Positions 42,821-46,603 of a stretch of 64,000 nt of DNA are shown in pieces (within the stretch, counting starts at the first letter, position 1; each line of letters starts with the position of its first letter). The position numbers and the translations under genes were made by a program. The notes below the pieces were generated by a model, which was not told the origin of the DNA, made no database searches, and saw only the letters and a program-made list of their open reading frames with translations. The stretch is from positions 1,922,001 to 1,986,000 of the forward strand of contig NZ_CP065037.1 of NCBI RefSeq assembly GCF_019924635.1, read 5' to 3'. The DNA is from Leifsonia sp. ZF2019 (GTDB lineage Bacteria > Actinomycetota > Actinomycetes > Actinomycetales > Microbacteriaceae).

Positions 42821-43297
42821 ATGCGACTGCACGTGCCGATCAAGCTCCGCTGGAGCGACCTGGATGCGTACGGGCACGTCAACAACGCCGAGATGCTGCG
42901 CCTCCTCGAAGAGGCGCGCATCGAGGCGTTCTGGGTCACGGACGACGCCGAGGCGGCGGTCGGAGGGTCGACCGCCGTCCTCGACGGGCGACCCGGCGCC
43001 GACACGCTCACCCTGATCGCCCGTCAGGAGATCGAGTACCTCGCGCCCATCCCGTACCTGCGGCCGCCGGTCGACGTGCAGCTCTGGATCGGCCGCCTGG
43101 GCGGCGCGAGTCTCGAGGTCTGCTACGAGGTGTGGTCGCCGGAAGGCATGGAGCCGCGCACGCTGTTCTCGCGGGCGGCGACGACGATCGTGCTGGTGGA
43201 CGCCGTGAGCCAGCGCCCGCGGCGCATCAGCGACACCGAGCGCGCGGCCTGGGAGCCCTACCTGGACGAGCCGGTGCAGTTCGCCAAGCGCGGCTGA
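42821..43297 (+). CDS. acyl-CoA thioesterase (4HBT hotdog)
   Basis: 158-residue single hotdog domain of the 4-hydroxybenzoyl-CoA thioesterase type. IKLRWSDLDAYGHVNNAEM carries the catalytic Asp and the helix start; the chain then runs LEEARIEAFW. GGAGGAG lies 5 nt before the ATG. It follows ettA by 19 bp and is probably cotranscribed. Acyl group unknown. Confidence 0.88.
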   Translation: MRLHVPIKLRWSDLDAYGHVNNAEMLRLLEEARIEAFWVTDDAEAAVGGSTAVLDGRPGADTLTLIARQEIEYLAPIPYLRPPVDVQLWIGRLGGASLEVCYEVWSPEGMEPRTLFSRAATTIVLVDAVSQRPRRISDTERAAWEPYLDEPVQFAKRG

Positions 43298-43333: not shown

Positions 43334-43855
43334 TCAGGGCGACGGTGTCGGTGTCGGCGCTGTCGGCAGCGGCGTCGGGGAGAACGAGTTCTCCCAGATC
43401 GCCCGCGAGCCGGCTTCGCCGATGAGAACGACGTCGACGACGGTGCCCGCGGCCAGCACCGCCGCGACGACCGCCAGCGCGACCACGACGACGATGCGCA
43501 CCGTGCGCGACGGCCGCCGCTCACGGCCGGGCCGATCGACGAAGAAGAACCACGCCCACTGCAGCGCGCTGAACACGAACAGGGCGATCACCCACGGGTA
43601 CAGCGTCTGACCGAGCGCGGCGTGCTCCCGGATCAGCGGGGTGGACGGCACCCGCGCCTCCAGCCACTCGCCCGCGTCCGTCACGATCGGCACGAGCACG
43701 ACGTTGGCCAGTGCGAGCAGGGGCGTCACGATCCCGAGCCGGCGGCGTGCGGCGGGCCAGAGCGGCACCACCAGCGCGCACAGGGCCGTCAGCGGCACGA
43801 GCACGACCACGACGTGCACCAGCAGCACGTGGAGCGGGAGACCGTTGACCTCCAT
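43334..43855 (-). CDS. DUF2231-like membrane protein, partner of the Rieske protein
   Basis: 173 residues with four hydrophobic helices (about 8-30, 36-58, 85-105, 120-140). It opens LPLHVLLVHVVVVLVPLTAL, where His residues in helix 1 could bind haem or a metal as in DUF2231 proteins, and ends in a Pro/Thr-rich tail. It is 22 bp downstream of the Rieske gene on the same strand, so the two probably form a small membrane electron-transfer unit, expressed from the ECF-type promoter upstream. Confidence 0.75.
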   Translation of the reverse strand: MEVNGLPLHVLLVHVVVVLVPLTALCALVVPLWPAARRRLGIVTPLLALANVVLVPIVTDAGEWLEARVPSTPLIREHAALGQTLYPWVIALFVFSALQWAWFFFVDRPGRERRPSRTVRIVVVVALAVVAAVLAAGTVVDVVLIGEAGSRAIWENSFSPTPLPTAPTPTPSP

Positions 43856-43877: not shown

Positions 43878-44327
43878 CTAGTTCGTCACCGTGACCGTGT
43901 CGCCGCTCACGGTCGCCGTGAGCTTGGGGAGGGGGTCGCGCGCCGGCCCGTTGATCACGTCGCCCGTCGCGGCGTCGAACGTCGAACCGTGGCACGGGCA
44001 GTCGAACTCCTTGCCCTGCGGCGCGACGGTGCAGCCCTGGTGCGTGCAGACCGCGCTGAAGGCGACGACGGTGCCGGCGGTGGGTTGCGCGACCACGACG
44101 GGTGCCGAGCCGATCGACGCGGAGACCGCTCCGCCGACCGGGATGGACGAGAGCGCGACCGTGGTGGAGCCTCCCGACCCGCCCGAGCCGCCCGTTCCGC
44201 CCGTGCCTCCCGACCCGCCCGCCCCGGCGGAGGTGCAGGCGGCGAGCAGCAGGGTCCCGGCCCCGGCGGCGGTTGCCCCGCCGAGCTGGACGAGGGTGCG
44301 ACGGGTGAGCGGGGTGGAGTCGGTCAT
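43878..44327 (-). CDS. Rieske [2Fe-2S] lipoprotein
   Basis: 149 residues. Arg9-Arg10 and the following hydrophobic stretch make a Tat signal and LLAAC gives a lipobox Cys at 31, so it is exported folded and anchored. A Gly/Ser/Thr repeat linker (about 33-53) leads to a Rieske domain: Cys94/His96 and Cys110/His113 are the cluster ligands, Cys99 and Cys112 the structural disulfide (CTHQGC, CPCHGS). It is too small for the bc1 subunit. GAGAGGA precedes the ATG. A TGAACC-N16-CGTGCA promoter lies 42 bp upstream. Confidence 0.92.
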   Translation of the reverse strand: MTDSTPLTRRTLVQLGGATAAGAGTLLLAACTSAGAGGSGGTGGTGGSGGSGGSTTVALSSIPVGGAVSASIGSAPVVVAQPTAGTVVAFSAVCTHQGCTVAPQGKEFDCPCHGSTFDAATGDVINGPARDPLPKLTATVSGDTVTVTN

Positions 44328-44368
44328 GACAGGATCCTCTCGGTCGGCGTAGCGTCTTCCTCACCGTA

Positions 44369-44396
44369 TGCACGGAGGAGCGCCTCGTTCGGTTCA
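44369..44396 (-). promoter_or_regulatory. ECF-sigma promoter of the Rieske operon
   Basis: On the minus strand TGAACC (44391-44396) and CGTGCA (44369-44374) are separated by exactly 16 bp. The same arrangement occurs in front of the adjacent sigma-factor gene on the other strand. Confidence 0.7.
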
Positions 44397-44414
44397 TCCT
44401 GCGCCGGATTCCGA

Positions 44415-44442
44415 TGAACTTTCCGAGTGTCCGCATCGTGTA
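44415..44442 (+). promoter_or_regulatory. ECF-sigma autoregulatory promoter
   Basis: TGAACT (44415-44420) and CGTGTA (44437-44442) with a 16-bp spacer, 27 bp before the sigma-factor ATG. Confidence 0.7.
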
Positions 44443-44468
44443 TCACGTGACCAGGAGCGGAGGTGGGC

Positions 44469-44981
44469 ATGCCCAACGACGACGCGCGTCTGCTGCGGGA
44501 ACTGCACGAACAGCACTCGCAGGCCGTGTGGCGCTACGTCGTGCACCTCACCGGCGATCGCGCCCTCGCCGACGACGTCGTGCAGGAGACCCTGCTGCGC
44601 GCGTGGAGACGGCCGGCAGTGCTCGACCAATCGCAGCACTCGGCCCGCGCCTGGCTGTTCACGGTGGCGCGCAATCTGGTGATCGACACGAAGCGCAGCG
44701 CGCACGACCAGCACGAGATCGGCACGGACGTCCTGCCCGAGAGGGCGACGGCCTCCGATGAGGCCGATGCGGTGCTGGACGCGTGGCTCGTGTCCGACGC
44801 CCTGGCGGAGCTCTCCGCCGAGCACCGGTCGGTGATCGTCCACGCCTACTACGGCGGCAGATCGATCGCCGAGATCGCGCGCGAGCTGGAGGTGCCGGAG
44901 GGAACCGTCAAATCGCGCCTCCACTACGGTCTGCGAGCGCTCCGGCTCGCGTTGCAGGAGAGAGGGGTGACGGAGCGATGA
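44469..44981 (+). CDS. ECF RNA polymerase sigma factor
   Basis: 170 residues with sigma-2 (about 12-80; DRALADDVVQETLLRAW) and sigma-4 (about 112-165; RSIAEIARELEVPEGTVKSRL) regions and no sigma-3, the ECF layout. SigL/SigK-type relatives in actinobacteria pair with RskA-like anti-sigma factors, as here. ATG at 44469 is chosen because GGAGG lies 5 nt upstream; an in-frame GTG two codons earlier is weaker. The stop overlaps the anti-sigma ATG by 3 nt. Its own promoter carries the motif it probably recognises. Confidence 0.92.
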   Translation: MPNDDARLLRELHEQHSQAVWRYVVHLTGDRALADDVVQETLLRAWRRPAVLDQSQHSARAWLFTVARNLVIDTKRSAHDQHEIGTDVLPERATASDEADAVLDAWLVSDALAELSAEHRSVIVHAYYGGRSIAEIARELEVPEGTVKSRLHYGLRALRLALQERGVTER

Positions 44982-45676
44982 CGACGCACGACGAGTTCGC
45001 GACGTGGGACGCGTCCTACGTCCTGGGCGCGCTGTCGCCGGCGGACCGGAGGGCCTTCGAGGAGCACCTGCGGGCGTGCGACAGCTGTTCTGCCGCCGTG
45101 GCCGAGCTCGCCGGTGTTCCCGGACTCCTCGGACTGCTGCCGCGTGAGCAGGGGATGGCGGCGCTGTCCGCCGACGCGCCTGAGCCGGGCGGAGTCGGTG
45201 CAGAGGTGCTGCCGCTCCTGGTGAAGCGAGCCCGGCGCCAGCGGCTGCGCACGCGCTGGCTCACCGCCGGGGTGGCGGCCGCGGCCGCGGTCCTGCTGGT
45301 GGGGGTGCTCTCCGTCGTGCTGCCGTCCGTGATCGGCACCTCCGCTCCCGAGGCGAAGCCGATCGCGATGGAGCAGGTCGAGCCGAGCGCGCTGAGCGCC
45401 GACCTGCGCCTGACCTCCGAGCCGTGGGGGACCCGTATCGACTCGCGCTGCAGCTATGCGGACGTGGGTGGCGGCCACGGCACGCGCTCCTGGACGTACG
45501 CGATGGTCGTGACCGATCGGGAGGGACGGCAGACGCAGGTGTCCACCTGGACGGCCCAGGAGGGGACGACCGTCGTCCCGACCGCGACGACGAGTGTCGC
45601 CCTGGCCGACATCGCGGCCATCGACATCCGCGCCGCCGGCGACGGAACGGTGCTCCTGCGCAGCACCTTCGGCTGA
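44978..45676 (+). CDS. RskA-type zinc anti-sigma factor
   Basis: 232 residues. The N-terminal ZAS domain has His4, His30, Cys34 and Cys37, the H-x25-H-x3-C-x2-C zinc motif. One transmembrane helix spans about 95-118, after an Arg-rich juxtamembrane stretch. The extracytoplasmic C-terminal domain of about 110 residues is RskA-like. It holds the sigma factor inactive at the membrane until an envelope or redox signal. Coupled to the sigma gene by an ATGA overlap. Confidence 0.92.
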   Translation: MTTHDEFATWDASYVLGALSPADRRAFEEHLRACDSCSAAVAELAGVPGLLGLLPREQGMAALSADAPEPGGVGAEVLPLLVKRARRQRLRTRWLTAGVAAAAAVLLVGVLSVVLPSVIGTSAPEAKPIAMEQVEPSALSADLRLTSEPWGTRIDSRCSYADVGGGHGTRSWTYAMVVTDREGRQTQVSTWTAQEGTTVVPTATTSVALADIAAIDIRAAGDGTVLLRSTFG

Positions 45677-45688
45677 TCGGCCGCGCGT

Positions 45689-46564
45689 TCAGCCCCGGCC
45701 GTCGGGGACGCGCAGCATCGCCTCCTGCGCGACGCTCGCCACCAGGCGCCCGTCGCGGCTGAAGATGCGGCCGAGGGCGAGACCGCGGCCGCCGCTCGCG
45801 CTGGGGGACTCCTGCACGTAGAGCAGCCACTCGTCGACCCGTGCAGGGCGGTGCCACCACATCGCGTGGTCGAGGCTGGCGGCCTTGAGCCCGGGGGTCG
45901 CCCAGGCGACGCCGTGGCGGCGCATGATCGACTCCATGATCGTGTAGTCGCTCGCGTAGGCGAGCGCCGCCCGGTGCAACGACGGGTCGTCGGGGAGGTC
46001 GCCGATCGTGCGGAACCAGACCGCTTGGTGTGCGACGTGCTCGCCCTCGACGCTCAGATAGACCGGCGACGTCACGTGGCGCATGTCGAACGGGCGCTGG
46101 CTCGCCCAGTACTGCGCGACGGGATGCTGGACGTCCTCCAGGCTGTCCGCCGACGACGGGAGCGACTCGGGCTCCGGCAGCCCCTGGGGCATCGGCACCT
46201 GGTGCTCGAGCCCCTCGTCCTCGTCCTGGAACGACGCGATCATCGAGAGGATCGGGAGGCCGTTCTGATACGCCTGCGTGCGGCGCGTGGAGAACGAGCG
46301 GCCGTCGTGGATGCGGTCGACGGAGAAGGTGATGGGCAGGTTCACGTCTCCCGGCCGGAGGAAGTAGCCGTGCATCGAGTGGATGCTGCGGTCGTCGGCG
46401 ACGGTGCGGGTGGCCGCGACGATCGACTGGGCGAGCACCTGGCCGCCGAAGACGCGGCCCAGCGGCATCCACTGCGACGGGCCCGTGAAGATGTCCTCGC
46501 TGGTGCGGGCGCCGGTGTCGGTGAGATCGAGTGCCGTCAGAAGGGATGCCAGGGGCTCGCTCAC
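45689..46564 (-). CDS. tesB: acyl-CoA thioesterase II
   Basis: 291-residue double-hotdog thioesterase. First hotdog: FGGQVLAQSIVAATRTV and SMHGYFLRPGDVNLPI; SFSTRRTQAYQNG follows. Second hotdog: LDHAMWWHRPARVDEWLLY, then GRGLALGRIFSRDGRLVASVAQE with the Asp/Thr/Gln catalytic set of TesB. GTG start at 46564 with GGAG 8 nt upstream. It diverges from the hypothetical gene at 46604. Hydrolyses medium to long acyl-CoAs, as inferred from family. Confidence 0.93.
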   Translation of the reverse strand: MSEPLASLLTALDLTDTGARTSEDIFTGPSQWMPLGRVFGGQVLAQSIVAATRTVADDRSIHSMHGYFLRPGDVNLPITFSVDRIHDGRSFSTRRTQAYQNGLPILSMIASFQDEDEGLEHQVPMPQGLPEPESLPSSADSLEDVQHPVAQYWASQRPFDMRHVTSPVYLSVEGEHVAHQAVWFRTIGDLPDDPSLHRAALAYASDYTIMESIMRRHGVAWATPGLKAASLDHAMWWHRPARVDEWLLYVQESPSASGGRGLALGRIFSRDGRLVASVAQEAMLRVPDGRG

Positions 46565-46603
46565 AGTGTCTCCGTCCGATGTCTCTAGTAGTTTAGAGGT
46601 CCG

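What the first reader, a model, noticed from the sequence alone, without database searches (positions are those of the whole stretch)
44369..44442. Matching divergent ECF promoters define a sigma/anti-sigma/Rieske regulon
Both directions in this gap carry TGAAC[C/T]-N16-CGTG[C/T]A: forward at 44415-44442 before the ECF sigma and its ZAS anti-sigma, reverse at 44391-44369 before a Tat-exported Rieske lipoprotein and a four-helix membrane protein. Spacing is identical (16 bp). ECF autoregulation is well known; the new point is an exported Rieske/membrane-protein pair as the likely direct target, suggesting the sigma factor answers envelope redox stress and the Rieske unit is the response.
Basis: partly seen in the sequence, partly recalled or inferred. 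Interest (0 to 1): 0.72.

Follow-up and report, generated by a model that had tools for sequence, protein, structure and literature searches.

The report
SigL switch for exported redox proteins
The gap between two gene pairs holds two copies of one promoter pattern, which likely lets the stress switch SigL turn on itself and also an exported iron-sulfur protein that would move electrons at the outer face of the cell membrane; related bacteria keep this layout or carry other exported proteins in that place.

Summary
The pair is SigL/RslA (best PDB matches), and CGTG fits the published SigL -10 region. Sigma and motif are thus known; the exported target is new.

Comparison supports it. Adjacent divergent Rieske genes carry the motif in 24 of 25 readable Leifsonia loci and 15 of 15 in ten other genera; 0 of 12 tested family Rieske genes away from SigL do. 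An unlinked Lipoprotein_15 gene carries it in 9 of 9 genus genomes that have the gene. In other genera SigL motifs precede Lipoprotein_15, YceI, FMN-binding or DUF2231 genes. At class level the contrast is weaker, and Rieske is optional: 37 of 55 family SigL loci lack it.

New here: RslA's exported domain has exactly one cysteine in 79 of 79 family loci, kept also in three class members that lack the zinc cysteines: a candidate outer sensor. Promoter use, signal and electron transfer remain inferred.

The parts
44415..44442 (+). SigL-type promoter of sigL-rslA: -35 TGAACT 44415-44420, N16, CGTG 44437-44440; predicted start of transcription near 44451
   Evidence: start predicted from the position numbering in PMC6372665 (passages)
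44369..44396 (-). SigL-type promoter of the Rieske/DUF2231-like unit: -35 TGAACC 44396-44391, N16, CGTG 44374-44371; predicted start of transcription near 44360
   Evidence: same numbering
44463..44981 (+). ECF sigma factor SigL, 172 aa (GTG start; ATG at 44469 equally possible)
   Evidence: NF007227 233.3 bits (cut-off 202); best PDB match 6dv9_F SigL, E 6.6e-54
44978..45676 (+). anti-sigma factor RslA, 232 aa: cytoplasmic zinc domain, one predicted membrane helix, exported domain
   Evidence: only PDB match 3hug_B RslA, E 1.7e-18; zf-HC2; membrane helix in 79 of 79 family loci
45065..45088 (+). zinc motif H30-x3-C34-x2-C37 of RslA
   Evidence: sequence; present in 78 of 79 family loci
45449..45451 (+). 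codon of Cys158, the only cysteine of the exported domain of RslA
   Evidence: one Cys in the exported part, same column, in 79 of 79 family loci
43878..44327 (-). exported Rieske [2Fe-2S] lipoprotein, 149 aa
   Evidence: PF00355 54.2 bits; b6f/bc1-type Rieske chains lead the PDB matches
44298..44303 (-). twin arginines R9-R10 of the Tat-type signal
   Evidence: translation; Tat reading recalled
44235..44237 (-). codon of the lipobox Cys31
   Evidence: translation; lipobox reading recalled
43989..44048 (-). cluster-binding stretch C94-T-H96-x2-C99 ... C110-P-C112-H113
   Evidence: translation; ligand roles recalled from bc1/b6f Rieske proteins
43334..43855 (-). four-helix membrane protein, DUF2231-like, 173 aa
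   Evidence: PF09990 23.0 bits, below the 26.4 cut-off; H9, H14, H78, W64, R68, W154 invariant in 41 sequences; model pLDDT 88.5

Best explanation
The gap holds two divergent promoters of the SigL type, which are predicted to let SigL turn on its own operon sigL-rslA in one direction and an exported Rieske iron-sulfur lipoprotein with a DUF2231-like membrane protein in the other. Inferred course: RslA holds SigL at the membrane; a thiol or metal signal, read at its lone exported Cys158 and likely also at its cytoplasmic zinc site (Cys34/Cys37), frees SigL. SigL then reads TGAAC-N16-CGTG at both promoters here and TGAAC-N17-CGTG at an unlinked Lipoprotein_15 gene. The products sit in or outside the membrane; the Rieske lipoprotein would carry electrons at the outer face, with the DUF2231-like protein, whose invariant His/Arg/Trp residues are predicted to face outwards, as its membrane partner. 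Across the class SigL keeps the promoter type while the exported target changes (Rieske, DUF2231, Lipoprotein_15, YceI, FMN-binding lipoprotein). Shown: sequences, motif conservation, families, synteny. Inferred: promoter use, signal, electron transfer.
For: Identity. Motif against chance. SigL's published -10 preference, CG then T-12 G-11 (PMC6372665, passages), fits CGTG. Motif before sigL: 25 of 26 genus, 46 of 52 family, 33 of 40 class loci. Motif before the adjacent Rieske gene: 24 of 25 readable genus loci (one more locus has an N gap), 15 of 15 family loci; unlinked family Rieske 0 of 12 tested (Fisher 6e-11, relatedness not corrected). Unlinked Lipoprotein_15: 9 of 9, found by the genome scan. 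Control: YceI genes of the genus 0 of 34. DUF2231 or Lipoprotein_15 with their own motif in other genera. Rieske with motif near SigL in four other families: L210, L216, L224, L245; DUF2231-like, Rieske and sigL in one direction in L231. SigL-less genus genomes: 2 of 2 Rieske promoters fall outside the pattern. RslA thiols. RslA frees SigL on oxidation in vitro: PMC2877774 (abstract and passages).
Against: No expression data. Rieske is optional: 37 of 55 family SigL loci have none in the stretch read and 24 of 42 family Rieske matches are not next to SigL. Both SigL-less Leifsonia keep the gene, one intact, and their promoters still resemble the pattern. At class level the contrast is weaker: unlinked Rieske genes have an N16 motif in 3 of 11 genomes with SigL and in 2 of 6 without it at my threshold. 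The Lipoprotein_15 promoter has 17 bases between the boxes in 8 of 9, not 16. The residues that read T-12 and G-11 in M. tuberculosis SigL (His54, Asp60) align with Arg and Gln here. No motif within 220 bases of sigL in 6 of 52 family and 7 of 40 class loci; in L102, L106, L130 and L211 a YceI gene with the motif lies directly upstream of sigL in the same direction, the others are unexplained or partly so. DUF2231 has no telling structural match, so a haem or quinone site is conjecture. Three class RslA proteins lack the zinc cysteines, which speaks against the zinc site as a general sensor.
Confidence: 0.7

Rival explanations
1. The Rieske/DUF2231-like unit is an ordinary electron-transfer unit with its own constitutive promoter that only happens to lie beside SigL; the SigL box adds a minor input.
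For: The gene is present in 28 of 28 genus genomes, also in the 2 without SigL; 24 of 42 family matches are away from SigL and 12 of 12 tested of those lack the box.
Against: Where the two are adjacent the box is present in 39 of 40 readable loci over 11 genera, and the pair recurs in other families in different orders.
Confidence: 0.2
2. The circuit is right but the signal is metal supply, iron above all, not oxidation: SigL would then adjust exported iron proteins.
For: In M. tuberculosis Rip1 and SigL are needed for growth at low iron (PMC10449499, abstract and passages); one target here binds an Fe-S cluster by family; RslA of M. tuberculosis holds zinc (PMC2877774).
Against: YceI, FMN-binding, DUF2231 and Lipoprotein_15 proteins are not known to me as iron proteins (recalled); RslA responds to oxidation in vitro.
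Confidence: 0.3
3. Only the sigL side is a SigL promoter; the mirror site is a chance or inherited copy without function.
For: ECF self-activation is common (recalled); the pattern is short; one genus locus lacks the Rieske-side box (L012).
Against: The box is found in 39 of 40 readable adjacent loci although the letters between the boxes differ among them; where DUF2231 is the divergent gene it lies before that in 6 of 8 loci.
Confidence: 0.06

Closest known systems
SigL-RslA of Mycobacterium tuberculosis
   Same: Best PDB matches of sigma and anti-sigma; sigma then anti-sigma in tandem; CG-TG -10 region; targets there include secreted or membrane proteins (title of Hahn et al. 2005 seen in a reference list).
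   Different: No Rieske, DUF2231 or Lipoprotein_15 target is named for it in the passages I saw; His54/Asp60 are Arg/Gln here.
Rieske subunits of cytochrome bc1/b6f and arsenite oxidase small subunit
   Same: CTHxGC and CPCHGS cluster motif.
   Different: A small free-standing lipoprotein; the neighbouring genes read here are not cytochrome b or molybdenum subunits.
DUF2231 membrane proteins (PF09990)
   Same: Four helices and invariant His near the N terminus.
   Different: Score below the Pfam cut-off; function unknown.
RsrA/ChrR zinc anti-sigma factors (named in PMC2877774)
   Same: HxxxCxxC zinc motif.
   Different: RslA here has a predicted membrane helix and an exported domain holding one invariant Cys.

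Membership tests
SigL-type ECF sigma factor | scores above the curated cut-off of NF007227 and is closest to SigL among solved sigma factors | tested here: met
   233.3 bits against 202; 6dv9_F SigL E 6.6e-54, next other sigma 4nqw SigK 9.3e-16
SigL-type ECF sigma factor | RslA-like zinc anti-sigma encoded directly downstream | tested here: met
   44978-45676; 3hug_B RslA E 1.7e-18
SigL-type ECF sigma factor | own promoter with the SigL -10 preference CG-TG | tested here: met
   44437-44440 CGTG; preference from PMC6372665 passages; motif in 25 of 26 genus loci
SigL-type ECF sigma factor | transcribes these promoters | not testable with these tools
   needs run-off transcription or RNA-seq
[quoted passage not shown]
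   H30, C34, C37; 78 of 79 family loci
[quoted passage not shown]
   shown for M. tuberculosis RslA in PMC2877774, not for this protein
Rieske [2Fe-2S] protein | PF00355 above cut-off with both C-x-H and C-x2-H ligand pairs | tested here: met
   54.2 bits against 20.3; C94/H96 and C110/H113 in the sequence
DUF2231 (PF09990) | score above the Pfam cut-off | tested here: not met
   23.0 against 26.4 bits; several close homologues carry PF09990, so it is called DUF2231-like only
Lipoprotein_15 (PF03640), unlinked gene with matches at G000:C1:1498938-1499246 | two repeats above cut-off | tested here: met
   61.2 and 55.9 bits against 24.4

The most novel reading that the evidence does not exclude
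SigL-RslA is a class-wide switch for the outer face of the actinobacterial membrane whose constant sensor is not the zinc site but a single exported cysteine of RslA, kept even where the zinc cysteines are lost; SigL answers with a swappable cassette of exported electron carriers (Rieske lipoprotein plus DUF2231 as a minimal outward-facing quinol or haem unit, Lipoprotein_15, FMN-binding lipoprotein, YceI).
Probability: 0.33. Interest if true: 0.75.

Novelty: new variant of a known kind. Interest (0 to 1): 0.52.

Why it matters
By a 2026 paper SigL is a less-studied sigma factor of its species (PMC13002591, passage), and its signal is open. The comparison gives a testable answer outside pathogens: exported redox-type proteins as its standing partners, natural presence/absence cases, and one exported cysteine to mutate. 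It also puts DUF2231 and Lipoprotein_15, two families without a known role in Pfam's description, into one regulon with a Rieske protein: in the genus Lipoprotein_15 occurs in 9 of 11 SigL genomes with DUF2231 at the locus and in 0 of 15 without (relatedness not corrected).

Tried and rejected

Papers: PMC2877774 abstract and passages; PMC6372665 passages; PMC10449499 abstract and passages; PMC13002591, PMC4821874, PMC7406223, PMC7509140 passages; the rest search listings only.

Rows dropped before counts: L026 (N gap) from the genus Rieske count; L089 from the family Rieske count; L209, L213, L215 and L231 from the class count of zinc-type RslA (36 of 40 left), the first three then read apart, L231 being cut short in the exported part; L259, a 101-base stretch. 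Of 24 unlinked family Rieske matches 12 were tested: 5 in genomes with SigL elsewhere, 7 without at E 1e-40. Of 88 class genomes with SigL 40 loci were read, 2 of them (L206, L208) from the same family as the window.

Full report
Observation. The two sites exist and match the pattern: + 44415-44442 and - 44396-44369, both with 16 bases between TGAACY and CGTGYA. The window has only these 2 (0.04 expected); the genome of 4,343,633 bases has 4, the backward control 0.

What the genes are. The sigma factor passes NF007227 (233.3 bits, cut-off 202), and its best solved relative is M. tuberculosis SigL (E 6.6e-54). The anti-sigma's only PDB match at E 1 or better is RslA (E 1.7e-18). The two genes overlap by ATGA. 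The divergent gene encodes a 149-aa lipoprotein with twin arginines, lipobox and a Rieske domain (54.2 bits); the next gene a four-helix protein, DUF2231-like but below the Pfam cut-off. Source names of the closest homologues put the genome in Leifsonia, Microbacteriaceae.

The motif is that of SigL. Work on M. tuberculosis SigL gives a -10 element T-G-N-C/A-A-G with a preferred C-G just upstream (PMC6372665, passages), so CGTG here corresponds to C-14 G-13 T-12 G-11. The two residues that read T-12 and G-11 there (His54, Asp60) align with Arg and Gln here, so the protein side of the reading has changed. Among the 65 of 78 genus and family SigL proteins that a simple pattern could read, 3 have His at the first place and 2 have Asp at the second.

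Conservation in the genus. 26 of 28 genus genomes have SigL. The sigL-side motif is present in 25 of 26 loci (the other, L026, has an N gap) and the Rieske-side motif in 24 of 25 readable loci (L012 keeps TGAACC but not CGTG; L009 has 17 bases between the boxes). The Rieske gene itself is in 28 of 28 genomes. In the two SigL-less genomes (G005, G027) no rslA match is found in the 5-kb stretch, the flanking genes remain, and the Rieske promoter falls outside the pattern, though it still resembles it; in G027 the Rieske gene has an in-frame stop.

Conservation in the family. 55 of 150 family genomes have SigL (E 1e-40) and 41 have the Rieske gene (42 matches, E 1e-15). By position, 18 matches lie beside SigL (3 in the genus, 15 in ten other genera). 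All 15 of the latter have TGAACN-N16-CGTN within 125 bases upstream of the match. Of the 24 unlinked matches 12 were read, and 0 of 12 have the motif with 16 or 17 bases between the boxes within 300 bases (Fisher p 6e-11 against 39 of 40, uncorrected for relatedness). A case on its own is L141: rslA still lies beside the Rieske gene, sigL is not found, and the motif is not there.

Other partners. Where Rieske is not beside SigL, the divergent gene can be DUF2231 (8 family loci), with its own motif in 6 of them (L092, L103, L114, L124, L126, L127, not L093 and L100). Motif-preceded neighbours in other genera are Lipoprotein_15 (L089, L092, L102, L106, L109, L114, L124, L127, L128, L134), YceI (L102, L106, L130, L137) and FMN-binding lipoproteins (L118, just under the Pfam cut-off, and L129). 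In L102, L106 and L130 the YceI gene lies directly upstream of sigL in the same direction, which would explain why sigL has no motif of its own there; L132, L135 and L138 remain without one. 19 of 52 family loci outside the genus have a DUF2231 match near SigL.

An unlinked target. One of the 38 genome hits of TGAACY-N16/17-CGTG starts 51 or 57 bases, by start codon, before a Lipoprotein_15 lipoprotein near G000:C1:1,498,776. 9 of 28 genus genomes have such a gene, and 9 of 9 carry TGAACC and CGTG at -48 to -57 from the start taken by the script, with 17 bases between the boxes in 8 and 16 in 1. At the background rate of 6.7e-5 per position (14 hits in 209,772) a single such gene would have the motif by chance at about 0.8 %. 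Lipoprotein_15 occurs in 9 of 11 SigL genomes with DUF2231 at the locus and in 0 of 15 without (Fisher 1.8e-5, uncorrected). Control genes: 0 of 34 YceI genes of the genus have the motif.

Across the class. 88 of 296 genomes have SigL at E 1e-38. Of 40 loci read, 33 have the motif before sigL. Rieske lipoproteins with a motif lie downstream of rslA in L210 and L216 and divergent in L224 and L245, in four different families (L210 and L224 confirmed by Pfam). In L231 a DUF2231-like gene, a Rieske gene and sigL follow each other in one direction, without a recognisable motif. The class-level control is mixed: unlinked Rieske genes have an N16 motif in 3 of 11 genomes with SigL and in 2 of 6 without SigL at my threshold. 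The 3 may be targets in trans; the 2 show that the motif alone is not proof.

The sensor side. 78 of 79 family RslA proteins have HxxxCxxC, 79 of 79 have a predicted membrane helix, and 79 of 79 have exactly one cysteine in the exported part, in one alignment column, with WGT (76, 79 and 78 of 79) before it and an invariant Trp after it. In the window this is Cys158 (45449-45451). Class-wide 33 of 36 partners with a zinc motif have exactly one exported cysteine, two have none (one of them cut short) and one has two. Three further class partners (L209, L213, L215, one genus) lack the zinc cysteines and still have exactly one exported cysteine in the same WGT context. RslA of M. tuberculosis binds zinc and frees SigL on oxidation in vitro (PMC2877774, abstract and passages); [quoted passage not shown] A lone exported cysteine that outlasts the zinc site is a good candidate for an outer redox or ligand site; this is inference.

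The membrane protein. The alignment of 41 sequences has invariant His9, His14, His78, Trp64, Arg68 and Trp154. The two arginine-rich loops (33-42 and about 107-118) should be inside by the positive-inside rule (recalled), so these residues would lie on the outer face, where the lipoprotein is. No solved structure supports a function.

Verdict. Only 11 of 26 genus loci have the DUF2231-like gene. Signal and function are open. In M. tuberculosis SigL is needed at low iron (PMC10449499), so a metal signal is a serious rival.

Noticed in passing
L141, 3037-3510 (-) and 3594-4400 (+): A congener of a SigL-bearing genome keeps rslA beside the Rieske gene but no sigL between them; the zinc motif and the exported Cys of RslA remain.
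   Followed up: partly
L209, L213, L215 downstream of sigL: In three loci of one genus the RslA-like partner has no zinc cysteines in its cytoplasmic domain but keeps the lone exported Cys in a WGT context.
   Followed up: partly
L033 (G000:C1:906278), L036 (G000:C1:993970), L205 (G000:C2:33433): Further own-genome motif hits shortly before ORFs: a methyltransferase-like protein, an MFS-like transporter, and a small exported protein (about 110 aa) on the 102-kb second contig. Conservation was not tested; the names are by eye.
   Followed up: no
L102, L106, L211: YceI and Lipoprotein_15 genes lie back to back with two SigL-type motifs between them, and YceI runs into sigL in the same direction.
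   Followed up: partly
L231 1011-1547 (-): The Rieske protein in the DUF2231-like/Rieske/sigL run lacks the second cysteine of each cluster motif (CPHQGA, CPRHGS), so it may have a lower potential than the others.
   Followed up: no
L216 4328-4738 (-): A small predicted membrane protein without a Pfam match is divergent from the Rieske gene, each with a SigL-type motif.
   Followed up: partly
window 42821-43297 and the TesB-like gene near 45690-46590: Thioesterase-like genes flank the locus on both sides; the first is found beside many Rieske genes also where SigL is not.
   Followed up: no
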